Shown: positions 8,611-32,710 of the stretch, piece after piece
Layout: the number at the start of each line of letters is the position of its first letter
Position numbering within the stretch: position 1 is the first letter of the stretch
Assembly: GCA_021202775.1 (NCBI GenBank)
Contig: JAJQCJ010000057.1
Coordinates: forward strand, 1-37,980
Reading direction: 5' to 3'
DNA: 37,980 nucleotides
Origin: Clostridiales bacterium
Lineage (GTDB): Bacteria; Bacillota; Clostridia; Oscillospirales; Oscillospiraceae
Translations under genes and position numbers: made by a program
The notes under the pieces: generated by a model
Told to the model about the DNA's origin: nothing
Seen by the model: only the letters and a program-made list of their open reading frames with translations
The model's database searches: none

Positions 8611-8734
8611 GATAAAAACACCACCACAGAATTTCAGCCGGCAGATGCCGGATGATGGAATCCTGTTCAAGAGCAGCTTGCGCTTCCTCTTGAAATGAGC
8701 GGTCGACTTTATACAAACGCCTGTATGAATATCG

Positions 8735-8753
8735 GCCACATATCCCTTGTGGC
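8735..8753. promoter_or_regulatory. Candidate operator, copy 1 (GCCACATATCCCTT)
   Basis: GCCACA at 8735-8740 and TGTGGC at 8748-8753 form an inverted repeat around TATCCCT. The first 14 bases recur exactly at 9010-9023. This copy lies directly downstream of the proposed leftward -10 box, where a bound regulator would block or modulate transcription of the AraC operon. Confidence 0.45.
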
Positions 8754-8754
8754 A

Positions 8755-8784
8755 ATTCTACAATAAAAAACCGGGCGAATGCAA
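8755..8784 (-). promoter_or_regulatory. Predicted sigma-70 promoter for the leftward operon
   Basis: On the minus strand a TTGCAT -35 box (8784-8779) is followed by an 18-base spacer and a TAGAAT -10 box (8760-8755). It lies about 145 bases before the chosen AraC-gene start and abuts the candidate operator. Confidence 0.5.
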
Positions 8785-8920
8785 GGACAAATGCGCAAAT
8801 AAGACAAAAATGCGGGTCAAATAAAATTTGCGGGCTGCTATTTTTAAAAATAGTTTTGCGAAACGAGAGCCAAAAAATTTACAAAAGTTTCACAAAAAAC
8901 GGCGGCACAATTTTTGCTTC

Positions 8921-8948
8921 TTTACAAAAAGAGCGTTTTTTATATAAT
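8921..8948 (+). promoter_or_regulatory. Predicted sigma-70 promoter for the importer operon
   Basis: TTTACA at 8921-8926, a 16-base A/T-rich spacer and a perfect TATAAT at 8943-8948 give the best promoter match in the divergent region. It leaves a leader of about 145 bases before the lipoprotein start. The stretch upstream (8820-8920) is strikingly AT-rich for this genome. Confidence 0.7.
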
Positions 8949-9009
8949 GGGATGGGCGTAAGAACCAAGGCGCGGCTGGTCCGGCGGGGCATTGGCAGTC
9001 CCTCATCTT

Positions 9010-9029
9010 GCCACATATCCCTTATATGT
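9010..9029. promoter_or_regulatory. Candidate operator, copy 2
   Basis: GCCACATATCCCTT at 9010-9023 repeats copy 1. Here ACATAT (9013-9018) and ATATGT (9024-9029) form the inverted arms around CCCTT. It lies about 60 bases into the proposed leader of the importer operon. A shared 14-mer in both divergent arms fits binding by the adjacent AraC-type regulator. Confidence 0.45.
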
Positions 9030-9102
9030 ATCTGTGCCCCGGCTGGGTCAGCCACCTTGCGGTCTGAAAATCTCATTATTCAATGAAAGGAAGAACCAAA
9101 CC

Positions 9103-10782
9103 ATGAAAAAGCACGCGAAATTCCTATCCCTGTTCCTGGCCCTGGCCATGTGCCTGAGCCTCCTGGCCGGGTGCGGCAGCTCCAGCTCCAGCAGTTCCGG
9201 AAGCTCCGACTCCGGTTCCGACGACACCTCCAGCTCTGCCGACGCTTCGGAGGACAGCGGCAGCGGTGACGAAGCGGAAGAAACGGACGGTTACGTTTTA
9301 GATGAACTGACCGTCTCCTGCAGCAGCGACGGCGGCACCTTTGACCCCTACACCCGCGGCGGCTGGGGCAAGATGGCCGTGGGCGACCTGATCTTCCAGT
9401 ACCTGGGCGACCTGGACAATGAAGGCACCGTACATTGGACCATTGCCAAATCCGTGGAGGCCGAGGACGACGGCCTGACCTACACCATCACTCTTTGGGA
9501 CTGCGTCTATGACTCCGTCGGCAACAACATCACCGCCGACGACGTGGTTTGGAGCTTTGAGAAGTACCGTGACGAGGGTCTGGGCTCCAGCTTTAACTTC
9601 GATCATTGGGAAATCATCAGCGATTACGAGCTGCAGTGGGTCTGCACCTCCGAGTTCGTGGCCGGCGAGCTGGAGAAGAACCTGACCAACTTCCCCATCC
9701 TGGATCAGGAGACCTATGAGGACTACTGCGGCGGCACCATGGCGAACAACCCCATCGGCACCGGCGCCTATGTGCTGACCAGCTACACCGTCGGTTCCGG
9801 CTTTGTGCTGGAGGCCAACGAGGACTTCTGGATGAACAGTCTGGACGAGGACGACGTGGACCTCTGGGTCTACAGCTATCAGAACGTCCGTCAGATCAAC
9901 TATGAGATCATTCAGGACACCTCCTCCATCGCCATGGCCCTGGAGAACGGCGACATCGACATTGCCGACACCCTGAGCAACGCGGACATCACCGCCTTCT
10001 CTGAGAATGACGACTTCAACATGGTCCTGATGCCTGTCACCGCGGCCACCGGCATTATCTTCAACTGCAGTGACGACTCCGTCTGCGGCAGCCTGGAAAT
10101 GCGTCAGGCAATCTGCTACGCACTGGACTGCGCCACCATCGCCGCCAACTGCGAAGCCTTCCCCACCTATCAGGTTTACGGCGTTGCCCCCAACGGTGTG
10201 GACGCACCGGAGAACTGGCTCACCGGCGAGGATCGGGACTACTATGACTACGACCTGGATAAGGCCAAGGAGCTGTTGGAAGAGGCCGGTTACAACGGCG
10301 AGACCATCACCCTGGCCTATGGCAGCTCCACGCTGAACGACTATCTGGCCACCACCATCCAGTCCATCCTGAACGAGGCCGGCATCATCGTCGAGCAGGA
10401 GCTCTGGGACAAGACCGTGGAGGACCAGAAGAAGTATGAGACCACCGAGTGGGACATCCGCCTGAGCACCTTCGGCGGCGGCACCTATGTCAACCAGATC
10501 ATCAAGCAGTTCAGCGCTGACAGCGTTTCCGCCTATCTGGAAGAGGGCATGAATATGTTCTTCGACATCAACCCCACCGCTGAGGATCTGTACTACGCCG
10601 TGCGGAACGAGGGCACCGTGGAAAGCATGGAAGCCTGGGATGAGGAGTTCACTTACAACTGCTGCTACGCCTACGCCGTCATCGGCTACTCCAACCAGAC
10701 CGCCTGCCGCGCCGGGCTGAACGTGCCCGTGGGCAAGTCCAATGAGAGCCTGATGCCCAACGCCGTGACCTTGGACGAATAA
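9103..10782 (+). CDS. ABC importer substrate-binding lipoprotein, family 5
   Basis: This 559-residue extracellular solute-binding protein belongs to the oligopeptide/dipeptide class (SBP_bac_5). The N-terminus has Lys residues, a hydrophobic core and the lipobox LAGC with Cys24, so it should be a lipid-anchored lipoprotein. A Ser/Asp/Glu-rich flexible tether of about 45 residues follows. The body carries family-like segments such as the GTGAYVLTSY loop, the DADVVWSFEKY-type helix region and the DKAKELLEEAGY motif. ATG at 9103 follows GAAAGGAAG by about 10 bases. It is the first gene of the importer operon and is separated from the permease by a stable hairpin. The ligand is unknown: the family binds peptides, glycosides, nickel chelates and other small molecules. 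Confidence 0.93.
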   Translation: MKKHAKFLSLFLALAMCLSLLAGCGSSSSSSSGSSDSGSDDTSSSADASEDSGSGDEAEETDGYVLDELTVSCSSDGGTFDPYTRGGWGKMAVGDLIFQYLGDLDNEGTVHWTIAKSVEAEDDGLTYTITLWDCVYDSVGNNITADDVVWSFEKYRDEGLGSSFNFDHWEIISDYELQWVCTSEFVAGELEKNLTNFPILDQETYEDYCGGTMANNPIGTGAYVLTSYTVGSGFVLEANEDFWMNSLDEDDVDLWVYSYQNVRQINYEIIQDTSSIAMALENGDIDIADTLSNADITAFSENDDFNMVLMPVTAATGIIFNCSDDSVCGSLEMRQAICYALDCATIAANCEAFPTYQVYGVAPNGVDAPENWLTGEDRDYYDYDLDKAKELLEEAGYNGETITLAYGSSTLNDYLATTIQSILNEAGIIVEQELWDKTVEDQKKYETTEWDIRLSTFGGGTYVNQIIKQFSADSVSAYLEEGMNMFFDINPTAEDLYYAVRNEGTVESMEAWDEEFTYNCCYAYAVIGYSNQTACRAGLNVPVGKSNESLMPNAVTLDE

Positions 10783-10817
10783 TTTCTGAACCACAGCCAG
10801 ACACATAACAAAACCGT

Positions 10818-10845
10818 CAGGGATACCGCACCGGCGGTATCCCTG
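10818..10845 (+). repeat. Intercistronic hairpin after the binding-protein gene
   Basis: CAGGGATACCGC (10818-10829) and GCGGTATCCCTG (10834-10845) form a perfect 12-bp stem with an ACCG loop. No T-run follows, so it is unlikely to be a strong terminator. Its position after the binding-protein gene suits 3' mRNA protection, giving more binding protein than permease. Confidence 0.7.
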
Positions 10846-10868: not shown

Positions 10869-11831
10869 GTGGTAAGATACGTCATTCGCCGGTTACTGAT
10901 CACCATTCCCATCATCGTTGCCGTGGCCATCATCGTGTTTACGCTGATGTACTTCGTCCCCGGCGACCCCGCCGTCCTGATTCTGGGCGAGGCGGCCTCT
11001 GAGGAAGAGCTGGCGGCCATGCGTGAATACCTGGGCATCAACCGGCCCTACATCGTTCAGCTGCTGGACTATCTGAAACAGCTGTTTATCGACTTTGATC
11101 TGGGCACCTCCTGGATCTACAAAACCAACATCTCCACCGAGCTGTACAACCGTATGCCCACCACCTTCGCCATCTGCGTGTACAGCATTCTGGTCAGCGC
11201 CTGCCTCGGCATCCCGCTGGGCGTCATGGCCGCTGTCAACCAGGACCGCTGGCCGGACAAGCTGGTGCTGTGGATGTCCAGCATTTTCACCTGCATCCCC
11301 AACTACTGCTGGGCCCTGCTGTTCATCGTCGTGTTCGCCCTGAATCTGGGCTGGTTCCCCATTTACGGCGTCAGCCAGGGGTGGAAGTCTTATGTGCTGC
11401 CATGTCTTTCCATCCTGATGGGCAGCTTTACCGGCCTGGCCCGGCAGACCCGCTCCAGTATGCTGGAGGTCATCCGATCGGACTACGTCACCAGCGCCAG
11501 GGCGCAGGGCTACTCCCGCAACACGGTTTACTACCTCCACGCGCTGCCCAACGCCCTGATCCCCATCATCACCATTCTGGGCACCCAGTTTGCGGCGGGG
11601 CTTGGCGGCACCCTGATTCTGGAGACCATCTTCTCCATCCCCGGTGTCGGTCTGTATGTCACCGGCGCCATCACCAAGCGGGACTATCCGGCGGTCATGG
11701 GCTGCGTGGTGTTCCTCGCCATCCTGTTCTGTCTGATCATGCTGGGCGTGGACGTCCTCTATGCCGTAGTGGATCCCCGTGTCAGAGCGCAATATGAAGC
11801 AAAAGGTGCGAAAAGGAGGCATAAAGCATGA
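10869..11831 (+). CDS. ABC importer permease 1 (DppB/OppB type)
   Basis: This 320-residue inner-membrane permease has about six helices. It starts RYVIRRLLITIPIIVAVAIIVF, the typical first helix of DppB-class proteins, and contains FVPGDPAV. The EAA loop region reads YVTSARAQGYSRNTVYYLHALPNALIPIIT. It pairs with the next gene to form the channel. The start is a GTG at 10869 behind AGAGGAGG. Its stop overlaps the next ATG as ATGA, implying translational coupling. Confidence 0.93.
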   Translation: MVRYVIRRLLITIPIIVAVAIIVFTLMYFVPGDPAVLILGEAASEEELAAMREYLGINRPYIVQLLDYLKQLFIDFDLGTSWIYKTNISTELYNRMPTTFAICVYSILVSACLGIPLGVMAAVNQDRWPDKLVLWMSSIFTCIPNYCWALLFIVVFALNLGWFPIYGVSQGWKSYVLPCLSILMGSFTGLARQTRSSMLEVIRSDYVTSARAQGYSRNTVYYLHALPNALIPIITILGTQFAAGLGGTLILETIFSIPGVGLYVTGAITKRDYPAVMGCVVFLAILFCLIMLGVDVLYAVVDPRVRAQYEAKGAKRRHKA

Positions 11832-12733: not shown

Positions 12734-12746
12734 GGAGGTGTCTGCT

Positions 12747-17403: not shown

Positions 17404-18234
17404 ATGAAAATTAGTGAGATTATTGAGCGGGTCATCGCCTACCATCCGCCCTTTACCAGAGAGCATACCACGGACGTCATCAAGTTCGGCGACCCGGAGC
17501 AGGAATGCACCGGTGTGGTGGTGACCTGTTTCCCGTCCATCGATGTGATTCGCAAGACGGCGGAGCTGGGGGCCAATTTCCTGATCGTCCACGAGCCGCT
17601 GTTCTGGAGCCATGAGGACACCACCGGCTGGCTGGAAAACAGCGCGGTCTACCAGACCAAGCGGCAGCTGCTCGCCGACGCAGGCATCACGGTCTGGCGT
17701 GACCACGACCATATGCACGGCGAGGGCTGGGGGCCCAAGCGGGTCAACCTGGACGGGATGTATGACGGCATCATGCGGGAACTGGGCTGGGAGCCCTACC
17801 TGGTGGAGTCGAAAAAGAAGCCCCTGGTCTTTCAAATCCCGGAGACGGACGGGGAGGCCCTGGGGCACGAGCTGATGGAGAAGCTGAACCTAAAGGGCAT
17901 CCGCATCGTCGGCGACCGGCACACGAAGGTCTCTCGGGTGTTCCTGTGTGAGCATATCGGCTCCAACGACCGCAGCGCGGAGGAAAAGCTCCTGCGCACG
18001 GAGATGGAGGAGTACGATGCCCTGATTCCGCTGGAGATCATTGACTGGACGCTGTGCGCCTATGTCCGGGATTCCTGTCAGGCGGGCAGGCCGAAGGTAC
18101 TCTATAATGTGGGCCATTTCAATCTGGAAGAACTGGGGATGCGTTATATGGCGCGGTGGCTGCCGGGGCTGGTGGACAATCAGATTCCCGTCACCTATGT
18201 GCAGTCCGGCGACGCCTTCGACTTCATCCTTTGA
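17404..18234 (+). CDS. NIF3/DUF34-family metal-binding protein
   Basis: This 276-residue protein resembles the NIF3-like dinuclear-metal family (YbgI/YqfO group). Visible family features are the N-terminal VVTCFPSIDVIRKTAELGANFLIVHEPLFW segment containing the HEPLFW metal motif, DHDHMHG, and the C-terminal NVGHFNLEELG, which supplies further ligands. Family members form toroidal hexamers. Their enzymatic roles are poorly defined, and proposals include nucleotide or GTP cyclohydrolase-like and metallochaperone activities. ATG follows GAGGG by about 9 bases. The presence of NIF3 inside a catabolic operon is noteworthy because it is usually a lone housekeeping gene. A specific hydrolase or isomerase role here is inference. 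Confidence 0.8.
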   Translation: MKISEIIERVIAYHPPFTREHTTDVIKFGDPEQECTGVVVTCFPSIDVIRKTAELGANFLIVHEPLFWSHEDTTGWLENSAVYQTKRQLLADAGITVWRDHDHMHGEGWGPKRVNLDGMYDGIMRELGWEPYLVESKKKPLVFQIPETDGEALGHELMEKLNLKGIRIVGDRHTKVSRVFLCEHIGSNDRSAEEKLLRTEMEEYDALIPLEIIDWTLCAYVRDSCQAGRPKVLYNVGHFNLEELGMRYMARWLPGLVDNQIPVTYVQSGDAFDFIL

Positions 18235-18305: not shown

Positions 18306-19229
18306 ATGAAAGCGATTGATTTTTCTTGTAAGCACGACATTCTGATTCGGCACAAGGACGGCACCCTGACCCCCATGGACGAGCCGTACTATGAGCCGAA
18401 GCTGATCGCCCCGGACACCTGGCAGATCATGAGCTCCGGCGACTACCACTATCTGCTGGTGGGCGACGAGGAGGGCATCACCATCGACACAGGCTACGGC
18501 GCGGGCAACCTGCGGGAGTATCTGGAGGGCCTGTGCGGCAAGCCCGTCCGCTGGGCGGTGAACACCCATCACCACTTTGACCACACCGCCAACAACTGTT
18601 ATTTTGACTTGGTGTATATGGCGGAGGAGTCCGTGGATCTGGCGGCGATTCCCTACCCCAGCTTTGAGGGTATCACCTTCCCCAGAGACTACGCCGTTCA
18701 GGTGGTGGACGACGGCTATATCATCCCCCTGAAGGGGCGGGAGCTGGAGGTGTTCAAAATCGGCGACCACACCGACGGCGGCATCGCCATCCTCGACCGC
18801 AAGGCGCGGCTGCTGTTCGCCGGGGACGAGATCATGCCCGGCGGCAAGCCCATCAGCAACACGGTGGAGAAGCTGCTGCGGGATACGGAAAAGCTGATGA
18901 AGCACCGGGACGAGTTTGACCTGGTTTGCAGCGGCCCTGACACCATGGACCCGGAGGTGGTGGACATCACCTATGAAGCCTGTCAGCGCATCCTGGCCGG
19001 GGAGCGGACGCCGGAGGCCAAGAACAGGCGCCGGGGCATGCCCCACAGAAAGCCTGAGCCTGAGGGCGGCCCCAAAATCTACGACTGCCAGCACCCCCAT
19101 CCGGAGGACGTACACAACGGCAAGCCCCGGATGAGCATGGAGGATCAGGAGGTCTTCTCCTACCGTGGACGGGAATTCACCTTCCAGGAGAGCAAGGTAT
19201 TTGACAAGCCGGAAGCGGCGAAGCAATAA
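18306..19229 (+). CDS. MBL-fold metallohydrolase, first of three
   Basis: This 307-residue metallo-beta-lactamase-fold protein has HHHFDH (the HxHxDH motif) in NTHHHFDHTANN, a later GDHTDGG His and FAGDE for the bridging Asp. The last canonical His appears replaced in CSGPDTM. It has an unusual basic and His-containing C-terminal tail of about 70 residues (RRRGMPHRK, QHPHPEDVHNG). Such enzymes hydrolyse thioesters, lactones, phosphoesters and amides. The ATG at 18306 follows AAGGAAGGA, and the open frame before it overlaps the NIF3 gene. It lies 8-11 bases before the flavoprotein gene. It is not closely similar to the other two MBL genes of the operon. Confidence 0.85.
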   Translation: MKAIDFSCKHDILIRHKDGTLTPMDEPYYEPKLIAPDTWQIMSSGDYHYLLVGDEEGITIDTGYGAGNLREYLEGLCGKPVRWAVNTHHHFDHTANNCYFDLVYMAEESVDLAAIPYPSFEGITFPRDYAVQVVDDGYIIPLKGRELEVFKIGDHTDGGIAILDRKARLLFAGDEIMPGGKPISNTVEKLLRDTEKLMKHRDEFDLVCSGPDTMDPEVVDITYEACQRILAGERTPEAKNRRRGMPHRKPEPEGGPKIYDCQHPHPEDVHNGKPRMSMEDQEVFSYRGREFTFQESKVFDKPEAAKQ

Positions 19230-22927: not shown

Positions 22928-23736
22928 AACTGATTTTTCAAGCGCGGGATGGGGGCCTGACCCCCGCCTGCAACGGCGGCGTCCTGAAAAGCATCGACGA
23001 TGGGGCGGTTTCCACGGTCAGCGCGCTGCTGGACTATCCCGGCACGGAGGACCTGCTGCTCCGCCTGCGGGATTACCCCTGGATCACCCTGGTCTGGCAG
23101 GCGGATTTCACCGGCTTCCCGGTGGCGCAGAAGGGGCTGGCGGAGGACTCCAGGCGGTTCCGCCGGGACCTGACGGACCCTGCCCTGAAAGAGCAGCTGA
23201 CGCTGGAGGCCCGCGCACAGGTGGAGCGCTGTATCCGTCTGTACGGCCGCGCCCCCTTTGCCGCGGAGCTGCCCAGGTCGATGGCCCTGTATGAGGTGCT
23301 GTCGGCGGTCTGCGATGATTACGGTATTTTCTATCACCTGAGCGACTGCTGCCAACTGACGGAGGACGGCGGGCTGGAGCTGGTCTCCTGCGGCACGGCG
23401 GGGCTGGCGCGCTACCACAATCCGAATCAGCCGGGGCTGACATTTGCGGACTACGACCACTATGACCCCATAGCGGAGCTGGCCCACCTGCCCGTCCGGG
23501 AGAATGGTACCTGGATTTTCCCCCTGTACCCCTGCTACCTGGACGACTGGATTTTGCAGGAAACCCTGCATGATGAACAGAGCCTGCGCACCGTCCAGCG
23601 GATGCAGGACGTGGTGGTGCTCTGCTCCCCGGAGCTGCGGCAGTGGATTCAGGCAAACAATGTGACGCCGGTCAGTCTGAGCGACGCCGTGTTGGGCAGG
23701 CAGGACTATCAGAATCACTGCAAGGCCACGGTATAA
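22924..23736 (+). CDS. ChbG/YdjC-like protein 2, probable pseudoenzyme
   Basis: This 270-residue paralogue of the preceding gene shares the same opening, the SIDDGAVSTV segment, the DYP/RPWI-type strand, the CDDYGI helix and the ending xxDYQNHxxxT. The key positions differ: RADDVG of copy 1 reads QARDGG here, and NWHTHWWG reads LVWQADFTG. The first Asp and both His are lost, and no DSHxHxH motif exists. It likely cannot deacetylate. It may be a regulatory or structural partner forming a heteromer with copy 1, which fits their ATGA-coupled translation. Loss of function by decay is less likely because the frame is intact and well conserved. Confidence 0.72.
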   Translation: MKLIFQARDGGLTPACNGGVLKSIDDGAVSTVSALLDYPGTEDLLLRLRDYPWITLVWQADFTGFPVAQKGLAEDSRRFRRDLTDPALKEQLTLEARAQVERCIRLYGRAPFAAELPRSMALYEVLSAVCDDYGIFYHLSDCCQLTEDGGLELVSCGTAGLARYHNPNQPGLTFADYDHYDPIAELAHLPVRENGTWIFPLYPCYLDDWILQETLHDEQSLRTVQRMQDVVVLCSPELRQWIQANNVTPVSLSDAVLGRQDYQNHCKATV

Positions 23737-23775: not shown

Positions 23776-25302
23776 ATGAACCAGCTATTTTCTTCTTCCA
23801 ACTCCATGGATATGGAGCGGCACTATCTCTGGGCGCAATACCCCGGGCTCCGGAGGGAAAACAATCCGCAGTACGGCACGGTATCCCCTGAGGACATCCG
23901 GTTTCGGCTGCTGACCTATGACGAGCTTTGCTATCTGCTCTCCAGCAGCGGGCGATACCTGATCCTGTTCGGCGGCAGCTGGTGCCCCCGGACGCAGCAG
24001 GCGGTCCCCCTGATTCAGTCCTGCGCGGAGCACTATGGCGTGGAGGCGGTCTATCTGTTTGACTTCCGGATGGACGGTGTGAGCCGGGACAGCGACATTC
24101 AGGCCGACCTGACGGAGCAGCCCTCCTATACCGGGCCGGGGCAGGCTGAGAAAAAGCGGCCCGGCGCGGAATGGAACCACCTCTATGGGGAGCTTGCCGC
24201 CCGATTCCTGACCAACCTGGCCGACTGGGTCAGCGGCAGCGGACACATCACCTGGCTGGACCGGATGGAGGAGCTGCGCACCGCCCCCAGGGTGGAAACG
24301 CCCTTCCTGTTCCTCTACGACCGGGCAAACACCACAGACCACAGCGGACGCCACCGCACCGGCGGGCGCTGTCCCATCGTCTACGGCATGGAGGTATGCG
24401 TAGATGGGGACTGTGGGGAAACGGTGCGCCGGCTGGAGGACGGCATTTTCTCCCATCTGGAGGAGCCGGGGACGGCGCCCGGCGTGTACACCCACGAAGA
24501 TTATCTGCGGGAGGCGTACCGCATCAATAGCCGTGGGCACAGCATGAAAACCCAGGACGCCTTCACGCCGGAGGAGCCGATTCAGATTCAGATGATGCCC
24601 TTCCATATGCTGGACTGGCTGCTGGACCAGGAGGGCACCTTCCTGATTTTGATCGGCGGGGCCTGGTGCTCCAACACCCAGGCGGCCATCTCCGTTATCA
24701 ATGACTACGCAGTGGCAAACAATGTTCGGGTCTATATGTTCGACTTCCGCCTGGACGGGAAGTACCCCTTCGACTTCTGGGAGTACCCCAGAGCGCGGGA
24801 GCTGAAAATCACTGGGGCACACAGCCCCTTCCGCCGCCTCTACATCGACATGGCGGAGAGGAAGCTGGTCAACCTGACCACGGTTCAGACCTTCGGCGGA
24901 TGGGACCCCTGCACCGTCCAATATACGGACGGGGCCGGAACGGTACACATCGCCGGCCGAGCGCAGGCGCCCCATCTGCTGGCCTATCAGAAGGGGGCGC
25001 TGAACCCCAGAGGAAAGCCTGCGCCGGTGCTGGCCTACTGCGAGCGGATGTATGAGCTGATCAACTGTCAGGACACCTTTATTTACTGTGACCCCAACTA
25101 TAAGGATTATAAGGCAGGGGTGTATAAGGTAATTTATACCTATTGTCAGCGCACCGGGGGACAGGCCAGGGAAATCACGTCGGATAAAACCCGGTCTGTG
25201 GTACCCGGCGAACCGGTGAAGCACCCGGAACCGGCAGAGTATCACAGAGCACACAACTGGGCGGCGGAGCTGCCCTGCGGCTGTGACGACGCCTGCTGCT
25301 GA
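23776..25302 (+). CDS. Tandem thioredoxin-like protein with single-Cys motifs
   Basis: This 508-residue cytoplasmic protein has two repeats of a thioredoxin-like fold. Each has a helix, a YLILFGG or FLILIGG strand, then the active-site turn: WCPRT (Cys70) in the first and WCSNT (Cys298) in the second. The second Cys of a normal CxxC is Thr-like or absent in both, so disulfide exchange must be monothiol or lost. A conserved FDFRxDG strand follows each repeat. The C-terminus ends CGCDDACC, a dense Cys cluster that could bind metal or act as a redox tail. ATG follows AAAGGAGG. I do not recognise a named family. A bacillithiol- or substrate-thiol-linked role is possible but unproven. Confidence 0.7.
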   Translation: MNQLFSSSNSMDMERHYLWAQYPGLRRENNPQYGTVSPEDIRFRLLTYDELCYLLSSSGRYLILFGGSWCPRTQQAVPLIQSCAEHYGVEAVYLFDFRMDGVSRDSDIQADLTEQPSYTGPGQAEKKRPGAEWNHLYGELAARFLTNLADWVSGSGHITWLDRMEELRTAPRVETPFLFLYDRANTTDHSGRHRTGGRCPIVYGMEVCVDGDCGETVRRLEDGIFSHLEEPGTAPGVYTHEDYLREAYRINSRGHSMKTQDAFTPEEPIQIQMMPFHMLDWLLDQEGTFLILIGGAWCSNTQAAISVINDYAVANNVRVYMFDFRLDGKYPFDFWEYPRARELKITGAHSPFRRLYIDMAERKLVNLTTVQTFGGWDPCTVQYTDGAGTVHIAGRAQAPHLLAYQKGALNPRGKPAPVLAYCERMYELINCQDTFIYCDPNYKDYKAGVYKVIYTYCQRTGGQAREITSDKTRSVVPGEPVKHPEPAEYHRAHNWAAELPCGCDDACC

Positions 25303-25362: not shown

Positions 25363-26217
25363 ATGTTTCAGGTATATGAAAGCGAAGAACTGCTGCACGG
25401 CGTGTACCGCATCACGGAGCGGCCTGCCGAGAACGCCCCCGGCGTCAATATGTACGTCGTGGTGGGCCAGGAGCGGGCGCTGCTGTTTGACACCGGCTTC
25501 GGCGTGACGGACACCCTGCCCGCCTTTGTGGCGGGCCTCACGGACAAACCCATCGTTTGCGTGGTGGGCCACGGCCACCCCGACCATGCCGGGGCCGCCG
25601 CCCTGTTTGACGAGGTCTACATGAACCACCGGGACGAGGGCCTGCTGCCGGTGGCCCTGTCCTATGAGCGGCGGATGGACGATGTCTTTGGCCGGCTGGA
25701 GCATCCCGACCCGGAGCTGAAAGCCTACTGCGAGACGCATATTGTTCTGACCGACCGGTTACACTACAAAGACATCGACCAGGGCGACACCGTTGACCTG
25801 GGGGGCCAGGTGCTGGAGGTCTACGCCATCCCCGGCCACACCAACGGCTCCATCGCCCTGCTGAACCGGGCGGGCAACTACGCCCTGGTCAGCGATGCCT
25901 TCAGCACCCGCACCGCGCTGGTGACCCTCCCGCCGGAGAAGCGGGTGGGCCTCACCGCCTATCGGGACGGTCTGGCCCGTTTTCTGGACGCCATCGGGGA
26001 GGACACCCTGCTCTATTGGGGCCACGGCAACGACCCGGTGAATCACGACATCCCCAGGGATATGCTCCGGGCCTGCACGGAGGTGCTGGACGGCCAGACG
26101 GAGCAGGACGTGGCCAGTGTCAGCCACTTCGCCAAACGGAAGGCCGCCGCCACAAAGCGGATGATGGAGCATAAATGCGGCAGCGTCCTGCTGGTGTATG
26201 ACGCCAACACCTTATAA
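25363..26217 (+). CDS. MBL-fold metallohydrolase, third of three
   Basis: This 284-residue enzyme has the full dinuclear ligand set: HGHPDH, IPGHTNGS His, LVSDAF Asp and LYWGHG His. It is a paralogue of the protein at 21189-22037 and differs by a few residues around the LVSDAFSTR loop and by a longer basic tail. AAAGGATGG lies before the ATG. It lies 60 bases after the thioredoxin-like gene and 21 bases before the flavodiiron-type fusion. Divergent copies in one operon suggest different acyl or ring substrates; this is inference. Confidence 0.88.
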   Translation: MFQVYESEELLHGVYRITERPAENAPGVNMYVVVGQERALLFDTGFGVTDTLPAFVAGLTDKPIVCVVGHGHPDHAGAAALFDEVYMNHRDEGLLPVALSYERRMDDVFGRLEHPDPELKAYCETHIVLTDRLHYKDIDQGDTVDLGGQVLEVYAIPGHTNGSIALLNRAGNYALVSDAFSTRTALVTLPPEKRVGLTAYRDGLARFLDAIGEDTLLYWGHGNDPVNHDIPRDMLRACTEVLDGQTEQDVASVSHFAKRKAAATKRMMEHKCGSVLLVYDANTL

Positions 26218-26238: not shown

Positions 26239-28743
26239 ATGGAACGGATCGACCAAAACAAAACGCTGTGGCACGTCGGCGTTGCCGACCCATCCCTGCG
26301 GGTGTTCCGGCAGGTCTCTTATACGGAGCGGGGGCTGCTGTACGGCTCCTACCTGCTGGACACGGGGGAGGGGTACCTGCTGGTGGGGGCCGTCCCCGCC
26401 CGGCACCGGAACCGGTGGCTGGAAAATGTGCAAGCCGTCACCCCGCTGGAAAACCTCCGGTGGGCGGTGCTGTTCGGCGGGACGGACGACCTGGCCGGGG
26501 CAGGGCTGCTGCTGGAGCAATGCCCTGACCTGACGCTCATCGCCGGAACAAACACCCTGTTCCGGCTGCGGGAGGGACTGCCCGCCGGGTTCCGGAGCAT
26601 TGAAATTCGCACCGGCCGCACCCTTCGCCTGGGGAACAGAGAGCTGATGTTTCAAATTGTGCCGGAGCAGTTCGCCACAGCCTCCCTCTACGTTGTGGAC
26701 AGGGCCGGCAAAACCCTGTTCACGGCGGACGCCTTCGGCTCGGACTACGCCGGGGAGCAGGTGCTGCTCAGCGAACTCCCCGACCGGGCGGAGTATTTCC
26801 GGGGGGCGGAGCGGTACTACGCCGACCTGATGGGGCGCAAGCGGAGGGACAGTCTGGCCCAGGCTGTTGCCCTCCTCCAGACCCATGACATTCAGCGCAT
26901 CTGCCCCGCTTTGGGGCCGGTGGCGGACTGCGATTTGGAGCAGCTGACCGCCCTCTATACGGCGGCGCCGCCGGAGGTTCCCCATCCCAACGTGGCCATC
27001 GTCCACGCCGGAAGCGAGCTGCTGTCCGGTCTGGCAACTCAGGTGCGGCAGGGATTGGAGGAAGCCGGCATTGGCGCAGTGACCTGTTATGACCTGAGCG
27101 CCGTGAACCGGGAGGAGGTGCTGGCCGCCCTGCCTGCGGCGGACGCCATCCTGTTCGGCGTGGACGGCGCGTGGGGCAACGCGGACAAAGCCCTCTGGGA
27201 CGTGGCAACCTCCCTCCTGAAGGATGACTGCAAGGGCAAGCTGACCTCCGTATTTTATCCGGCGGCAGCCGGGGAACTGGTGGAGGACTTCCGCCAGCGG
27301 CTGGCCTCCCTGGGCTTTGCCCTGACCCTGCAGGACTTCTTCGTCCAGGGGGTGCCCACGGAACAGGACAGGAAGCACGCCCTGGACTACGGCTTCGGCG
27401 TGGGGTGCAGCGTGCTGCGGGTGCCCAACCCCCGGAAGCCGACGCTGGTGAAGTGCCTGGTCTGCGGCGAAATCTTTGACGCCTCTCTGGGGGCCTGCCC
27501 GGTGTGCGGCGTGGGGCTGGACCAGTGCGTCCCCGTGGAGGAGGACGAGGCCCTGTTCCACCGGGACACGGACAGCCGTTATGTCATCGTGGGCGGCGGC
27601 GTGGCCGCTGTCTCCGCGGCGGAAGCCATCCGCCGTCGGGACGGGACGGGCACCATCCTGATGCTCTCCGCGGAGCCGAGTCTGCCCATCAACCGCCCCA
27701 TGCTGACCAAGGACATCCAGACCGCAGCGGAAGCGCCGGAGGAGCTGGCAATCCACCCGGCGGAGTGGTACCGGGAGCGGGCCATCGACCTGCGCCTGGG
27801 CTGCACCGTCACCGCCATGGACACGGCGGAAAAGACTGTCACCACCGCCGACGGGACGCATATTTCTTACGACAAGCTGGTGATTGCCACCGGCGCGGAG
27901 TGCTTCATCCCGCCCTTTGAGGGCTGGCAGAAGCCGGGGGTGCTGACCATCCGGCACCTGTCGGACAGCGCGGCGTTGGCCGGACTGATGCAAAACGCAA
28001 AGCAGGCAGTCGTTATCGGCGGCGGCGTACTGGGGCTGGAGGCGGCCAGCGAGCTGCTCCGCTCCGGGCTAAAGGTGACGGTGCTGGAGGCGACCCCCCA
28101 GATCATTGGCCGTCAGGCGGACGCCAAATCCGCCGCCCTCCTGCGGGAGCAGATGGCAGCTATGGGGGTGGACTGCTATGAGGGCGTGTCCATCGCCGCC
28201 ATAGAGGGAGAAGAACAGGCCACCGGCGTGCGGCTGGGGGACGGTCGGGTGTTCCCGGCGGACTTTGTCATTGTCTCCTGCGGCAACCGGGGCAACGTCC
28301 AGGCGGCCAAGGCGGCAGGCATCGCCGTGGAGCGCTCTATTGTAGTGAACCAGCGGATGGAGACCAGCGCAGCGGACGTGTACGCCTGCGGTGACTGCGC
28401 CCAGTTCGACGGCTTGAACTATCAGCTGTGGGCAGAGGCCTCCGGCCAGGGCACCATAGCCGGTGCCAACGCCGCTGGGGAAAAGCTGACCTACGCCAAT
28501 CAGCTCCTGGGGCTGAACCTGGAGGGGTTCGGCACAACCCTCTTCGCCATCGGCGACCCGGGCAAGCAGCCGGACGTCCCCTATCAGACGGTGGAGGTGT
28601 CCGACAGCGTCCGGAACCGGCATGAGACCTACTGGTTCTTCGGCGGCGCACTGGAGGGGGCCGTGGTCATCGGCGCACCGGAGAAGGTGCCGGAGCTGAC
28701 CCAGGCCGTGACTACCCACGCCCGCTACAGTGAGCTGTTTTGA
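26239..28743 (+). CDS. Flavodiiron-rubredoxin-NADH:rubredoxin oxidoreductase fusion with degenerate diiron site
   Basis: This 834-residue protein has the domain order of class F flavodiiron proteins: beta-lactamase-like (about 1-245), flavodoxin-like (about 250-395), a short rubredoxin (Cys406, Cys409, Cys420, Cys423; CLVCG and CPVCG) and an NADH:rubredoxin oxidoreductase module (FAD fold VGGGVAAVSAAEA near 451; NAD fold IGGGVLGLEAASE; YACGDCAQ). True family members reduce O2 to water at a diiron site. Here the HxExDH site reads FGGTDD (79-84), the PMLHWP position reads PEQFAT (142-147) and the SHGP His reads ALGP (224-227). Only two Asp remain. The flavodoxin phosphate loop is also atypical (HAGSELLSG). 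O2 reduction is therefore unlikely; it may act as an NADH-to-rubredoxin electron hub. The IS element begins about 3 bases after its stop. Confidence 0.85.
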   Translation: MERIDQNKTLWHVGVADPSLRVFRQVSYTERGLLYGSYLLDTGEGYLLVGAVPARHRNRWLENVQAVTPLENLRWAVLFGGTDDLAGAGLLLEQCPDLTLIAGTNTLFRLREGLPAGFRSIEIRTGRTLRLGNRELMFQIVPEQFATASLYVVDRAGKTLFTADAFGSDYAGEQVLLSELPDRAEYFRGAERYYADLMGRKRRDSLAQAVALLQTHDIQRICPALGPVADCDLEQLTALYTAAPPEVPHPNVAIVHAGSELLSGLATQVRQGLEEAGIGAVTCYDLSAVNREEVLAALPAADAILFGVDGAWGNADKALWDVATSLLKDDCKGKLTSVFYPAAAGELVEDFRQRLASLGFALTLQDFFVQGVPTEQDRKHALDYGFGVGCSVLRVPNPRKPTLVKCLVCGEIFDASLGACPVCGVGLDQCVPVEEDEALFHRDTDSRYVIVGGGVAAVSAAEAIRRRDGTGTILMLSAEPSLPINRPMLTKDIQTAAEAPEELAIHPAEWYRERAIDLRLGCTVTAMDTAEKTVTTADGTHISYDKLVIATGAECFIPPFEGWQKPGVLTIRHLSDSAALAGLMQNAKQAVVIGGGVLGLEAASELLRSGLKVTVLEATPQIIGRQADAKSAALLREQMAAMGVDCYEGVSIAAIEGEEQATGVRLGDGRVFPADFVIVSCGNRGNVQAAKAAGIAVERSIVVNQRMETSAADVYACGDCAQFDGLNYQLWAEASGQGTIAGANAAGEKLTYANQLLGLNLEGFGTTLFAIGDPGKQPDVPYQTVEVSDSVRNRHETYWFFGGALEGAVVIGAPEKVPELTQAVTTHARYSELF

Positions 28744-28994: not shown

Positions 28995-30251
28995 TCAAGC
29001 CTTTGACACAGTTTCAGCAGTAGTTTCCTGAGAAGGCTCGGCTTCTTTCGGCTCAAGCGTTTTGAGGTAATCGTTCACCTGGGCGTAGTAGCGGCGCAGA
29101 AATTTGTTTGCCCCGGCAGTCATGTAAACGTAGTACGGCTTACCATCGGCCCGTTTACGGTCAAGAAATTGGAAAATTGGCTCGTCCGCAGGAGCCTTCT
29201 GGATATAGATCTCCATGATGTTAAACAGCGTCTTGCGAAGATAGGGAGAACCCCGTTTTGTGGTCTTGTTGCTCTTTGAGACCTTGGTTCCAGAATCATT
29301 GGGAGCAGGGTCTACTCCAGCAAAAGCCACAAGGGATTTCTTGCTTGCAAAGCGTCGAACGTCACCGATTTCGGCCATAAGCTGCGGACCAGTCGAGTCC
29401 CCACAGCCGTACATTGCCATGACAAATGGGTATTCCGGCAGCATAGAGGCCAGGCGCTTCATCTCAGCACGGTACGTCTCTACAGAACGGGAAATGCTAG
29501 TGAGCTGGTCTGCTGCCCCCTGGACAAGGAGCTTCGTGACCTCGGACTTGGAGACCAGAACGACAACGGATTTGGCAAGTGTGTAAACCTCCTCAGCCTT
29601 ATCCTGCTTGAACTTGTAGTCATGTCGTTTACACCATTTGCGGTATCGCTCGGTAAAGGCGTTCTTGCTGACACCCCGCACACAGTCTGCGTGCCAGAAA
29701 TCGTGCGTGAAGTCTACCCACTTTTGCGTACCGTCCTTCCGCACAGGGCTGGTGAAGCACTTGCGGATGCCGGGAAAGGACTGCTCCTGCAATGCGATGA
29801 GGTTGTTGGCCGTGGTCGTCTTTTGCTTGACTGCCAAGTGGAACTGGCGGTTCAGCGTTTTCAGATCATAACGAACGGTATCCATGGGAGTATAATCCCG
29901 CAGATCAGCCCAGTTGTCAAGACCGTATCTGGCAATCTTGGCGGCATCGGCCTTATCCGTTTTGACCTTGCGCAGTGAGTTGCCGCCGTATTCCTTGATC
30001 AGCAGCGGATTCACCGCACTGACAAACAAACCGGCGTCATGGAGAACATTGGCTATGGGTTCGTAGTAACGGCCCGTGTGTTCCATCACCACACGAGTTT
30101 CCCCATCCAGATTCTTGAGTGTTTGAGCCAAATGGAGCAAGCTCTTCGCATCGTGCCTGACTTCGAAGGGCAGCATCACAACCTCCCCAAAGGGCCGGAG
30201 GACGGCGACCATGCTCTTCCTGCTGGAAACATCAATACCTGCTGCGTTCAT
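28995..30251 (-). CDS. IS110-family transposase (DEDD recombinase)
   Basis: This 418-residue recombinase has an N-terminal RuvC-like DEDD domain (GIDVSS; VVMEHTGRYYEP; KTDKADAAKIAR) and a C-terminal Transposase_20 domain with the GVDPAPNDSGT segment, which carries the catalytic Ser of this family. Proteins of this family bind a bridge RNA that specifies donor and target DNA. ATG at 30251 is chosen over two upstream Met codons because AGGAG (30265-30261) lies 9 bases before it. Base composition is visibly less GC-rich than neighbouring genes, consistent with recent transfer. The frame is complete, so the element may be active. Confidence 0.93.
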   Translation of the reverse strand: MNAAGIDVSSRKSMVAVLRPFGEVVMLPFEVRHDAKSLLHLAQTLKNLDGETRVVMEHTGRYYEPIANVLHDAGLFVSAVNPLLIKEYGGNSLRKVKTDKADAAKIARYGLDNWADLRDYTPMDTVRYDLKTLNRQFHLAVKQKTTTANNLIALQEQSFPGIRKCFTSPVRKDGTQKWVDFTHDFWHADCVRGVSKNAFTERYRKWCKRHDYKFKQDKAEEVYTLAKSVVVLVSKSEVTKLLVQGAADQLTSISRSVETYRAEMKRLASMLPEYPFVMAMYGCGDSTGPQLMAEIGDVRRFASKKSLVAFAGVDPAPNDSGTKVSKSNKTTKRGSPYLRKTLFNIMEIYIQKAPADEPIFQFLDRKRADGKPYYVYMTAGANKFLRRYYAQVNDYLKTLEPKEAEPSQETTAETVSKA

Positions 30252-30279
30252 GTTGTGCATCTCCTGCCTGATAAAATTT

Positions 30280-30309
30280 GCAATGGACAGAGCCATCTTT
30301 ACCCATTGC
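30280..30309 (-). repeat. Inverted repeat near transposase start
   Basis: GCAATGG (30280-30286) and CCATTGC (30303-30309) form a 7-bp stem just upstream of the transposase ribosome site. It may be part of the IS non-coding RNA or limit transposase translation. Confidence 0.35.
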
Positions 30310-30382
30310 CGATCCTATCTGTTTGGTGACGCGAACGCTGTGGAACTACCACTTGGCCCTACCTGCACAAATCGAATGCTGC

Positions 30383-30461
30383 GAATAGGAGATGGCTGAC
30401 TGACTTCCTAACGGGCGTAAAAGCCCTTGGAGTGATAAGTCAGACCATTACTCTCCTATTC
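30383..30461 (-). ncRNA. Candidate IS110 bridge RNA stem-loop
   Basis: Upstream of the transposase and on its strand, a perfect 10-bp outer stem (GAATAGGAGA with TCTCCTATTC) encloses an inner stem (TGACTT/AAGTCA), an asymmetric internal loop, and a GGGC/GCCC tip hairpin. This stem, internal loop and tip hairpin layout is that of a bridge-RNA guide loop. On the transposase strand the 5' loop side reads ATCACTCCAA. Its TCACTCC (30435-30429) also occurs at the insertion flank (30542-30536). The 3' loop side GGAAG can pair with CTTTC at the other flank with one G-T wobble. Full RNA ends are unknown; it may extend over about 30300-30530. Confidence 0.5.
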
Positions 30462-30548
30462 TAACAGCTTAGGCAACGAGATGTCCCATGCCTATGGCTG
30501 GCTGCCATAACCAAGGGGCAAATATTATAGTAACAGGAGTGAAAGAAA

Positions 30549-32411
30549 ATGAGCCAATCTGTGACCCCGCCCCGCACCATGGAGCTGCCCCGTCCCCAGA
30601 CGGTGGCCTGCCCCTATGAGGCGGCCTACACCGCCGACATGGTGGTGGTGGGCTGCGGCTTCGCCGGGCTGAATGCTGCGGTGTCCGCCAAAGAGCAGGG
30701 GCAAAGCGTCCTGGTCATCGACAAAGGGCGGCCCGGCTACTCCGGCCTGTCCCCTTGGCCCAGCAGCTTCCGCTGGTTTGACCCGGAGCGGGGAGACGAT
30801 GCGGAGTCCTTCCGACAGGCCATGATGGTGGGAGGCGACTACCTCAGCAACCTGAGCTGGTACGAGTGCTGGATTCAGGAGTCCAAAGGTATCTATCAGC
30901 GTCTGTCCGACTGGGGCATCCTGGCCCAGTACCCCAAGGCCTCCGAGGCGGGGGAGTTCTACAAGCAGGAGGACTTCGTGGGCTACCGGGAGACCTTTGA
31001 CCGGTTTGACCGCCATAAGAAGTGGATGGAGGTGTTGAGCCGCTACGAGATCCCAGTGCTGGAGCACACCATGGTGACAGACACCCTGACGGAGGACGGC
31101 AGGGTCAGCGGCGTCATGGGTTTCCACGTCCCCAGCGGACAGGTCATCGCCGTCAGCGCGAAGGCGGTAGTGCTGGCCACCGGCGGCGGCAGCTACAAGC
31201 CCACCGGCTACCCCACCGGCGGCAACACCTTCGACGGGGAGTACATGGCCTATGAGCTGGGCCTCCCCATTGCGGGCAAGGAGTTTGAAGACTTCCATGG
31301 CACCTCCGGCACCGCCCCCGGCAACGTGTTTCTGGACAACCACTGGCAGTACCTGGAGAACATCTGGCTCTGCGGCGGCGACGTGGTGCCGGGCAACATC
31401 GGCAGCTACGCCGGCACCAAGGGCAACGTCATGGTGTTGGGCCGGGTGCGCAAGGCGGTGAACGGCGTCCCCAAGATCGACGGTTCGGAGACCCAGGACG
31501 TGGCCACCGCCGCCTTCACCCGGCGGGGCGGCTCCCAGACCTACGGCAGCGACCCGGCGGAGCAGCGCTCCGGCAAGATGAGCAGCCCTGTGGCGGAAAG
31601 CAGTCTGGCCGGTGCGGCCACCGGGATGTGCTGCCACCTGACCTCCGGCGTCTTTTGTGGACTGCGGGAGCGGGATTGCGCCACCGGCATCCCCGGCCTC
31701 TATGTGGCGGGGGACGGCATCCACGCAACCTCCCCCTCCGGCGCGGCCTATCCCTGCGGGGTGGGCTTCACCTCCTGCTTCTGCTCCATCGACGGCGACC
31801 ATGCGGGCAAGGCGGCCGCCGCCTACGCCGCAGGGCTCCCGACCCAAACCCTCTCCCCGGAGACGGTGGCGGCCAAAACGGAGGAGATCACCGCTCCCCT
31901 GCGGATGGAGAAGGGCTTCGACGCCAACTGGGCGCGGGATGTGCTGCATTCCATCATGGCCCCCTACTGGGTCAGCGTGGCAAAAAGCGAGGCCACATTA
32001 CAGGCGGCACTAGTACAGGTGCTGTACATGAAGGAGCACGTCGTTCCCCGGCTGTCGGCCTGCACCAGCCACGACCTGCGGCTGTGCATTGAGGTGAAAC
32101 ATAAGGTGCAGAGCGCCGAGCTGAAGCTCCGCGCCAGCCTGGCCCGGCAGGAGAGCCGGGGCAATACCTATCGGACGGACTACCCCTACCGGGACGACGC
32201 CAACTTCCTGTGCTTCCTGACCCAGAAGAAAGACGCGGACGGCACAGCCACGCTGGAGAAGGTGCCGGTGCCGGAGGAGTGGGCCGGCGATTTGCAGCAG
32301 CCCTATGAGAAGCGGTATGTGTACTACTTCCCCGGCGAGCCGGAGGCGAAGGGCTTTGAACCGCCCGCGTCCCGCTGGGGCGGCAAAGGCGGAAAAGGAG
32401 GGAGAGCATGA
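30549..32411 (+). CDS. FAD-dependent fumarate-reductase-type flavoprotein 2
   Basis: This 620-residue FAD_binding_2 flavoprotein has a dinucleotide fold VVVGCGFAGLNAAVSAKE ending in the Asp of VIDKGRPGYSG, a LATGGGSYKPTG FAD loop, a GLYVAGDGIHATSPSGAAYPCG second FAD region, and the C-terminal ESRGNTYRTDYP pattern. It is longer than flavoprotein 1 and only distantly similar. It has no membrane anchor, haem motif or signal peptide. It ends in a Gly/Lys repeat tail (GGKGGKGG). Its stop overlaps the next ferredoxin as ATGA. The IS110 element now lies directly upstream. It likely forms a soluble two-subunit reductase; the electron acceptor is unknown. Confidence 0.87.
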   Translation: MSQSVTPPRTMELPRPQTVACPYEAAYTADMVVVGCGFAGLNAAVSAKEQGQSVLVIDKGRPGYSGLSPWPSSFRWFDPERGDDAESFRQAMMVGGDYLSNLSWYECWIQESKGIYQRLSDWGILAQYPKASEAGEFYKQEDFVGYRETFDRFDRHKKWMEVLSRYEIPVLEHTMVTDTLTEDGRVSGVMGFHVPSGQVIAVSAKAVVLATGGGSYKPTGYPTGGNTFDGEYMAYELGLPIAGKEFEDFHGTSGTAPGNVFLDNHWQYLENIWLCGGDVVPGNIGSYAGTKGNVMVLGRVRKAVNGVPKIDGSETQDVATAAFTRRGGSQTYGSDPAEQRSGKMSSPVAESSLAGAATGMCCHLTSGVFCGLRERDCATGIPGLYVAGDGIHATSPSGAAYPCGVGFTSCFCSIDGDHAGKAAAAYAAGLPTQTLSPETVAAKTEEITAPLRMEKGFDANWARDVLHSIMAPYWVSVAKSEATLQAALVQVLYMKEHVVPRLSACTSHDLRLCIEVKHKVQSAELKLRASLARQESRGNTYRTDYPYRDDANFLCFLTQKKDADGTATLEKVPVPEEWAGDLQQPYEKRYVYYFPGEPEAKGFEPPASRWGGKGGKGGRA

Positions 32412-32710
32412 GCGTCATCAGAGTGGATTTGAACAAGTGCATTGGCTGTGAAAACTGTGTGAACATCTGTCCCCTGGACGTGTTCTACTTCGACCCGGTA
32501 GCCCACAAGTCGGTGCTGGCCTACCCGGAGAACTGCCAGAGCTGCGGCCAGTGCTACCTGAACTGCCAGGGCCGTGCCCTGGGCATCAGCAACGATATGT
32601 ACGCCTACGCCATCACCGCCTTCCGGGGGGCAGGCACCGCCGCCATGAACCGGGTGGTGGTGACGGAGCCGGGGGTGCTGACCGAGGTGACACGGGGGAG
32701 GCTGCCGTAA
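32408..32710 (+). CDS. 2x[4Fe-4S] ferredoxin 2
   Basis: This 100-residue ferredoxin has cluster motifs CIGCENCVNICP and CQSCGQCYLNC, then a C-terminal extension of about 40 residues. The last Cys is followed by Q rather than the usual P. It is translated by ATGA overlap from flavoprotein 2, so it is its probable electron partner. It is the last gene of the catabolic train; no clear terminator follows. Confidence 0.92.
   Translation: MSVIRVDLNKCIGCENCVNICPLDVFYFDPVAHKSVLAYPENCQSCGQCYLNCQGRALGISNDMYAYAITAFRGAGTAAMNRVVVTEPGVLTEVTRGRLP

What the first reader, a model, noticed from the sequence alone, without database searches (positions are those of the whole stretch)
8611..32710. Large inducible catabolic locus of unknown substrate: importer, hydrolases and soluble flavoprotein reductases
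Seen: a five-part peptide-type ABC importer is followed by at least twelve enzyme genes with short gaps or ATGA overlaps, and a divergent hydrolase/efflux operon is headed by a membrane AraC regulator. Known: SBP_bac_5 importers, MBL hydrolases and FAD_binding_2 plus ferredoxin pairs each have many substrates. Inference: imported conjugate, cytoplasmic deacylation, then reductive use of the product as electron acceptor. I do not recognise this combination as a described pathway.
Basis: partly seen in the sequence, partly recalled or inferred. Interest (0 to 1): 0.8.

Follow-up and report, generated by a model that had tools for sequence, protein, structure and literature searches.

The report
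Catabolic locus with repurposed flavodiiron protein
A large gene cluster from Clostridia appears to import and break down an unknown conjugated compound, and it carries a relative of an oxygen-reducing enzyme whose oxygen-reducing site is gone and which seems to have become an electron supplier for the pathway's flavoprotein.

Summary
The locus is real: a membrane AraC regulator, a five-gene SBP_bac_5 importer, 13 further co-directional genes and a divergent hydrolase/MATE operon. One correction: an IS110 copy splits off the last two genes in this strain. The substrate stays unknown.

The new point is the 834-aa gene. It has the layout of a class F flavodiiron protein (MBL, flavodoxin, short rubredoxin, NADH:rubredoxin reductase), but its diiron ligands are gone (0-3 of 7 kept in 16 aligned rows from 13 genomes; 7 of 7 in 39 other FDP rows). 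Most relatives also lost the FMN loops; rubredoxin cysteines and NADH/FAD motifs are intact. These proteins form one clade, are under purifying selection, and sit with an AprAB-like FAD/ferredoxin pair in 12 of 13 genomes. Most likely NADH electrons pass through rubredoxin and ferredoxin to that flavoprotein. The hydrolases beside the importer include a neutral-ceramidase fold with an altered zinc site. Within the genus the redox module is conserved while importer, sensor and esterase diverge. Verdict: new variant of a known kind.

The parts
743..2095 (-). MATE efflux transporter, last gene of divergent operon
   Evidence: PF01554 E 4e-43 (on the longer frame 743-2308); start by codon-based gene call; 96% identical in G194 contig C98
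2236..3834 (-). COesterase-family carboxylesterase, no signal peptide seen by eye
   Evidence: PF00135 E 9e-79
3866..5062 (-). EstIg: Ig-like + PHB-type esterase
   Evidence: PF18435, PF10503
5059..6360 (-). cerA: neutral-ceramidase-fold protein with altered zinc site
6391..8610 (-). Membrane AraC-type regulator, two hydrophobic segments
   Evidence: PF12833 E 1e-20; hydropathy
9103..10782 (+). SBP_bac_5 lipoprotein (LAGC lipobox read by eye)
   Evidence: PF00496 E 1e-53
10869..11831 (+). ABC permease B
   Evidence: PF00528
11828..12733 (+). ABC permease C
   Evidence: PF00528, PF12911
12747..13859 (+). ABC ATPase D (start uncertain)
   Evidence: PF00005, PF08352
13856..14851 (+). ABC ATPase F
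   Evidence: PF00005, PF08352
14839..17355 (+). cerEst: ceramidase-like domain fused to PHB-type esterase by Gly/Pro linker, 838 aa
   Evidence: homologous to cerA + EstIg; ligand positions H-K-E-Y
17404..18234 (+). DUF34/NIF3 protein
   Evidence: PF01784 E 3e-11
18306..19229 (+). mblA: metallo-beta-lactamase-fold hydrolase
   Evidence: PF00753 E 1e-14
19241..20923 (+). fad1: FAD_binding_2 flavoprotein
   Evidence: PF00890 E 1e-19
20943..21170 (+). fdx1: 2[4Fe-4S] ferredoxin, 75 aa
   Evidence: PF12838; two CxxCxxC motifs
21189..22037 (+). mblB: MBL-fold hydrolase, 56% identical to mblC
   Evidence: PF00753
22034..22927 (+). ydjC1: YdjC-type deacetylase
   Evidence: PF04794 E 4e-22
22924..23736 (+). 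ydjC2: second YdjC-type deacetylase
   Evidence: PF04794 E 4e-11
23776..25302 (+). 508-aa protein without family; two WCxxTQ thioredoxin-like stretches by eye
   Evidence: no hit; weak thioredoxin E 0.1; model poor
25363..26217 (+). mblC: MBL-fold hydrolase; 93-94% identical in two congeneric or near genomes
   Evidence: PF00753 E 9e-16
26239..28743 (+). fdp834: MBL-flavodoxin-rubredoxin-NADH:rubredoxin reductase fusion; diiron ligands and FMN loops lost
28995..30296 (-). IS110-family transposase, inserted between fdp834 and fad2; not part of the system
   Evidence: PF01548, NF033542; absent from 5 related junctions
30549..32411 (+). fad2: AprA-like FAD_binding_2 flavoprotein, no signal peptide seen by eye
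   Evidence: PF00890, PF02910; profile vs 1jnr E 4e-36
32408..32710 (+). fdx2: AprB-like 2[4Fe-4S] ferredoxin, 100 aa
   Evidence: PF00037, aprB model E 5e-6, below its cut-off, two CxxCxxC motifs

Best explanation
A catabolic locus of gut-type Clostridia. A membrane AraC regulator senses an extracellular compound (inferred). An oligopeptide-type ABC importer takes up a conjugate (inferred from family), and cytoplasmic hydrolases (ceramidase-fold/PHB-esterase fusion, carboxylesterase, three MBL enzymes, two YdjC deacetylases) strip it (inferred). The released core is reduced by flavoprotein/ferredoxin pairs (inferred). For fad2-fdx2 the electrons come from NADH through fdp834, a class F flavodiiron paralogue whose diiron ligands and FMN loops are gone (shown from sequence) and whose rubredoxin and NADH:rubredoxin reductase are intact: NADH, then FAD, rubredoxin, ferredoxin, and the FAD of fad2 (route inferred). 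The dead core may dock the partner proteins (inferred). Within the genus this redox module is kept while sensor, binding protein and esterase differ, so one redox back end may serve several conjugates (inferred).
For: Ligand loss: 0-3 of 7 diiron ligands in 16 rows from 13 genomes against 7 of 7 in 39 other rows including E. coli NorV; two rows dropped; rows are the best-scoring loci fetched. FMN loops clearly changed in 8 of 11 lost-site rows shown, four Rd cysteines and GxGxxG motifs kept in 11 of 11. One clade, 100/99 support, 11 of 11 rows. Purifying selection on each domain, MBL omega 0.26-0.36, NROR 0.10-0.12, three pairs. Conservation inverted: MBL less conserved than NROR in 36 of 36 pairs of 9 lost-site rows, in 1 of 66 canonical pairs. 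Next to fad2/fdx in 12 of 13 genomes (in the window across the IS110 copy); in the 13th the contig ends inside fdp834. Sibling clusters put a NuoF-like gene (L082, L102) and NuoG/FeFe-hydrogenase-like genes (L101, L102) after a FAD + ferredoxin pair. Some fad2 relatives bear Tat signals. mblC, fad2 and fdx2 93-98% and fdp834 88-94% identical in near genomes, AlaRS 93% in G134, importer ATPases 78-80%, SBP 47-49%, AraC 37-38%.
Against: No biochemistry, expression data or substrate. Direction of electron flow is not shown. Most linkage data come from genomes reached through a cerEst search, so co-occurrence is biased. fad2 relatives of 31-55% identity occur without an fdp834 hit in the stretch fetched (G174, G124, G033, G186, G061, G042, G477; some stretches are short). 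In G090 the FDP/fad2/fdx set lies on a 19-kb contig without importer hits; in G931 it lies on another contig than the importer locus L093. In both the MBL part is shortened and the FMN loops are largely kept (G927 keeps one in part), so FMN may still work there. The IS110 copy may uncouple fad2-fdx2 from the operon promoter in this very strain. Red deer locus L095 has importer, cerEst, mblA, nif3 and ydjC, but its genome gave no fdp834 match at E 0.001 and no fad2 match at E 1e-60.
Confidence: 0.5

Rival explanations
1. Oxidative direction: fad1/fad2 dehydrogenate the released sugar or alcohol-like core and pass electrons through ferredoxin and rubredoxin to NAD+ (or, in sibling clusters, to H2).
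For: Sibling clusters contain GH3, Gfo/Idh/MocA, lactonase and FMN_dh genes and NuoF-like plus FeFe-hydrogenase-like genes that could dispose of electrons; YdjC proteins suggest carbohydrate substrates.
Against: The fused reductase belongs to NADH:rubredoxin reductases, used in class F FDPs to take electrons from NADH (PMC6033852, passages); fad2 relatives with Tat signals look like terminal reductases.
Confidence: 0.27
2. Detoxification island: the cell meets a plant toxin, hydrolyses and reduces it for protection, exporting products by MATE, without gaining carbon or energy.
For: MATE gene in the divergent operon; FAD_binding_2 reductase Cgr2 of Eggerthella lenta inactivates plant cardenolides (PMC5953540, passages).
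Against: A dedicated importer would raise the internal toxin load; the metabolic gene set is large.
Confidence: 0.15
3. Oxygen or NO detoxification by a class F flavodiiron protein placed by chance in a catabolic operon.
For: Overall four-domain layout equals class F FDP.
Against: Diiron ligands lost in the whole clade sampled, FMN loops in most of it.
Confidence: 0.03
4. Ordinary peptide uptake and catabolism.
For: Importer genes match oligopeptide/dipeptide/nickel-type NCBIfam models, below the cut-offs shown.
Against: No peptidase family named among the window's enzyme genes; esterases, deacetylases and flavoproteins instead.
Confidence: 0.05

Closest known systems
Class F flavodiiron protein (Clostridioides difficile CD1623; PMC6033852, passages read)
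   Same: Domain order, about 840 aa, short-spaced rubredoxin, NADH:rubredoxin reductase domain
   Different: Diiron ligands lost, FMN loops changed; lies beside AprAB-like genes in a catabolic locus. That paper calls the diiron residues strictly conserved in class F
Cyanobacterial Flv1/Flv2 (PMC4390876, passages read)
   Same: FDPs without canonical diiron ligands
   Different: Three-domain type with a flavin-reductase domain; here a rubredoxin and NADH:rubredoxin reductase follow, FMN loops are also changed in most rows, and the setting is a catabolic operon of Clostridia
Neutral ceramidase (2zws, 4wgk)
   Same: Fold over the catalytic domain; His97, Glu411 and, in cerEst, Tyr448 equivalents kept
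   Different: His204 equivalent is K/R/Q in 11 of 13 rows; no signal peptide seen; fused to an esterase or encoded next to one
Adenylylsulfate reductase AprAB
   Same: FAD_binding_2 subunit plus 2[4Fe-4S] partner; similar C-terminal region
   Different: Far below the NCBIfam aprA cut-off (55.4 of 641.75 bits); no sulfate-reduction gene among the window's family hits
Cgr2 digoxin reductase (PMC5953540, passages read)
   Same: FAD_binding_2 reductase of a gut bacterium acting on a plant compound
   Different: Cgr2 is predicted to be Tat-exported with a heme-bearing partner; fad2 shows no signal and has a ferredoxin; no direct sequence comparison made

Membership tests
Class F flavodiiron protein | MBL-flavodoxin-short rubredoxin-NROR order | tested here: met
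   NorV-type model over 7-386 and reductase domain from 447; short-spaced CxxC pair
Class F flavodiiron protein | Seven diiron ligands H,E,D,H,H,D,H | tested here: not met
   Window keeps 2 of 7 (GTDLFDL), aligned to NorV; 12 of 12 canonical class F rows keep 7 of 7
Class F flavodiiron protein | FMN-binding loops of the flavodoxin domain | tested here: not met
   YxSxYGxT region reads VHAGSELLSG, and SAFGSYGWSGE reads SVFYPAAAGE in the window; role of the motifs recalled; G090 and G931 largely keep them
Class F flavodiiron protein | NADH:oxygen oxidoreductase activity | not testable with these tools
   needs purified protein
Neutral ceramidase | Catalytic-domain fold | tested here: met
Neutral ceramidase | Zinc ligands (His97 by chain count, His204, Glu411, Tyr448; set recalled) | tested here: not met
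   cerA H-R-E-C, cerEst H-K-E-Y
Neutral ceramidase | Pfam PF04734 above cut-off | tested here: not met
   No Pfam hit for cerA at E 0.001; none in own genome (whose controls also rang nowhere)
Neutral ceramidase | Catalytic serine | not tested
   outside the printed alignments
Adenylylsulfate reductase AprAB | AprA-like flavoprotein + 2[4Fe-4S] partner encoded together | tested here: met
   fad2-fdx2 overlap by ATGA; profile vs 1jnr E 4e-36; aprB model E 5e-6
Adenylylsulfate reductase AprAB | NCBIfam aprA cut-off | tested here: not met
   55.4 bits against 641.75
Fumarate reductase FrdA | Histidine for covalent FAD and substrate arginine (residues recalled) | tested here: not met
   Neither position is conserved in the pairwise alignment to 2b76; single alignment only
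Oligopeptide/dipeptide ABC importer | SBP_bac_5, two BPD permeases, two ATPases with oligo_HPY domain | tested here: met
   all five genes over Pfam cut-offs

The most novel reading that the evidence does not exclude
A clade of class F flavodiiron proteins has lost its diiron site, and in most sampled members the FMN site too, and become an NADH-powered electron donor for an AprAB-like reductase. It forms a constant cytosolic redox module to which different sensors, importers and hydrolases are attached, so that gut Clostridia can use or dispose of many plant conjugates with one redox back end.
Probability: 0.45. Interest if true: 0.72.

Novelty: new variant of a known kind. Interest (0 to 1): 0.56.

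Why it matters
Class F flavodiiron proteins are studied as oxygen-reducing enzymes of anaerobes, and by similarity this gene could be annotated as an O2/NO reductase. A clade without the diiron site but with a preserved NADH:rubredoxin arm is a clean, testable case of an enzyme turned into an electron-delivery part. The marker (a class F FDP lacking HxExDH beside FAD_binding_2 + ferredoxin) can find the same system in other genomes and points to a cytosolic flavoprotein whose substrate is probably a diet-derived compound.

Tried and rejected
Substrate: no family hit named one. Sibling-cluster genes (GH3, Gfo/Idh, lactonase, FMN_dh, esterases) hint at glycosides or acylated plant compounds but do not decide. 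Ordinary APS, fumarate or ceramide chemistry was set aside for the residue and score tests above. The 508-aa protein: three sequences only, model pLDDT 41.5, so no fold search was run. Rfam and tRNA scans were empty. The PF04734 search rang nowhere, controls included, so it shows nothing by itself.

Rows dropped: L168 (my script took a 43-aa wrong frame) and L173 (matches only the rubredoxin region); only 55 fetched loci were aligned, not the many weaker matches. In the tree, partial or duplicate rows (L114, L149, L152, L161, L162), L168, L173 and most short FDPs. In one search, G090 and G931 and partial rows. G194 and G937 are counted as one genome because contig numbers and lengths agree. 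My gene finder failed on AT-rich loci (L093, L100, L103, L105, L110), replaced by tblastn. In some searches the AlaRS frame was wrong for several genomes; only G134 protein identity (93%), G090 (56%, partial) and nucleotide identities for G134 and G194 (93%, 91%), all, are used. In one search my listed atpD start was not a start codon, so the gap before it there is not used.

Full report
What is there. The window is the whole contig C36 of a 2.52-Mb draft genome in 174 contigs. From 6391 to 32710 it holds a regulator, an importer and a long run of enzyme genes. The AraC protein (6391-8610, minus) has two hydrophobic segments and a C-terminal AraC domain. Behind it, on the same strand, lie cerA, an Ig-esterase, a carboxylesterase and a MATE transporter. 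On the other side of a 492-bp gap is an SBP_bac_5 importer, then cerEst, NIF3, mblA, fad1, fdx1, mblB, ydjC1, ydjC2, a 508-aa protein without family, mblC, fdp834, then an IS110 copy, then fad2 and fdx2. Gaps from cerEst to fdp834 are -4 to 71 bp and five junctions on the plus strand are ATGA overlaps.

The IS110 copy. In G134, G194 (two copies), G936 and G935 fdp834 and fad2 are 15-16 bp apart; in the window the same spacer is split by the element. This is a strain-level interruption, and fad2-fdx2 expression here is uncertain.

Conservation. A scan of named genomes with two peptide patterns of the cerEst alignment gave 22 loci, a lower bound. MAG C.3_10 carries 94-100% identical copies of the genes held on two contigs. 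L097 shares the run from cerEst to nif3. L094, L098 and L105 (the last two titled Lachnospiraceae and Pseudobutyrivibrio) carry much of the set in other orders; L095, L093 and L104 carry parts. Titles name red deer and roe deer abomasum for two; I cannot verify a source for the others or for the window. In 200 genomes of the same family 30 had a cerEst match and 4 a match to the 508-aa protein at E up to 0.001, the window's genome included. fad2 at E up to 1e-60 was found in 1 of 390 other genomes drawn from the class and in 0 of 347 others in that genome's family, so it is rare.

Mosaic. Against G134, AlaRS is 93% identical in protein. mblC, fad2 and fdx2 are 93-97% and fdp834 88%, but the ATPases are 78-80%, permeases 75%, mblA 69%, cerEst 58%, nif3 52%, SBP 47% and AraC 37%. 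MI.B2_1 (L109) shows the same for AraC, SBP and importer. So the redox module diverges about as the one housekeeping gene tested, while the recognition and hydrolysis part looks exchanged. G194 holds two copies of fdp834-fad2-fdx2, 96.3% alike in DNA, one followed by a carboxylesterase and nif3, the other by a serine recombinase 89% identical to the one at 33646 of the window.

fdp834. Pfam and NCBIfam show a NirB/NorW-type reductase from residue 447 and flavorubredoxin similarity over 7-386. The layout equals class F FDPs; passages of PMC6033852 describe CD1623 as an NADH:oxygen oxidoreductase with diiron residues strictly conserved in the class. I aligned 57 rows: window, NorV, and 55 loci fetched. 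Two rows were not usable. Of the other 55, 16 (13 genomes, duplicates included) keep 0-3 of the seven ligands, 39 keep all seven. Of 11 lost-site rows inspected, 8 have clearly changed FMN loops, G927 keeps part of one, and G090 and G931, whose MBL part is shortened, largely keep them; all 11 keep the four rubredoxin cysteines and both nucleotide motifs. On a 28-row tree the 11 lost-site rows form one branch with support 100/99, next to 12 canonical class F rows (long branches L156-L158; midpoint root). dN/dS between the window and G134, G936 and G935 is 0.26-0.36 for the MBL part, 0.07-0.17 for flavodoxin, 0.04-0.16 for rubredoxin, 0.10-0.12 for NROR (Nei-Gojobori in my script). In canonical pairs the MBL part is less conserved than NROR in 1 of 66 pairs; among 9 lost-site rows in 36 of 36. 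This is the pattern of a protein that works without its old active site, not of a pseudogene.

Its partner. fdp834-type genes lie next to fad2 and a ferredoxin in 12 of 13 genomes, in the window across the IS110 copy; in the 13th (G934) the contig ends inside fdp834 (the ferredoxin was checked only where a longer stretch was fetched). None of the 12 genomes with the canonical class F rows shows a fad2 match at E up to 1e-60. The 14 genomes were reached through cerEst, so this is not an unbiased sample; among the loci fetched from the family-wide draw, lost-site FDPs were in G000, G134, G194 and G090. fad2 relatives of 31-55% identity also occur with a ferredoxin but no fdp834 hit in the stretches fetched, and three relatives bear Tat signals. 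In sibling clusters a FAD_binding_2 + ferredoxin pair is followed by a NuoF-like gene (L082, L102) and NuoG/FeFe-hydrogenase-like genes (L101, L102; in L102 the pair is named by similarity to L101). Together this supports NADH-linked electron exchange with the flavoprotein. Direction is inference.

What is known. No paper found describes this locus or a class F FDP without diiron site in ten searches of an open-access library, which misses most subscription journals; three papers were read in passages only, the rest seen as listings. Cyanobacterial Flv1/Flv2 are a precedent for FDPs without canonical ligands (PMC4390876, passages).

Noticed in passing
window 33646-35843: Large serine recombinase with DUF4368 and a TnpW-like gene near the contig end; an 89% identical recombinase follows the second fdp834-fad2-fdx2 copy of G194 (L148), so the module may be mobile.
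   Followed up: partly
window 23776-25302; L013:16811-18442; L011:1492-2940: 508-aa protein family without Pfam or NCBIfam match, two WCxxTQ-like stretches in the window's copy; matches in 4 of 200 family genomes including this one, one of them weak.
   Followed up: partly
L083:2775, L187, L188 N-termini: Relatives of fad2 with twin-arginine (SRRDFL) signals; L083's copy has a ferredoxin gene next to it, suggesting exported versions of the same reductase.
   Followed up: partly
L101:14149-19522, L102:14176-19552, L082:16297-19999: FAD_binding_2 + ferredoxin followed by NuoF-like and, in L101/L102, NuoG/FeFe-hydrogenase-like genes in clusters with ceramidase-fold hydrolases and importers.
   Followed up: partly
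L080:8760-10879: The AraC gene beside the 89-96% identical divergent operon in G194 is read in two overlapping frames, a possible frameshift.
   Followed up: no
G000 contigs C35 and C77 (L017, L018): Two more partial clusters of the same kind (esterase, MBL and ceramidase-fold genes; lactonase) in the same genome.
   Followed up: partly
cerEst, about residues 515-560: Long Gly/Pro/Lys-rich linker between the ceramidase-fold and esterase domains, of variable length in relatives.
   Followed up: no
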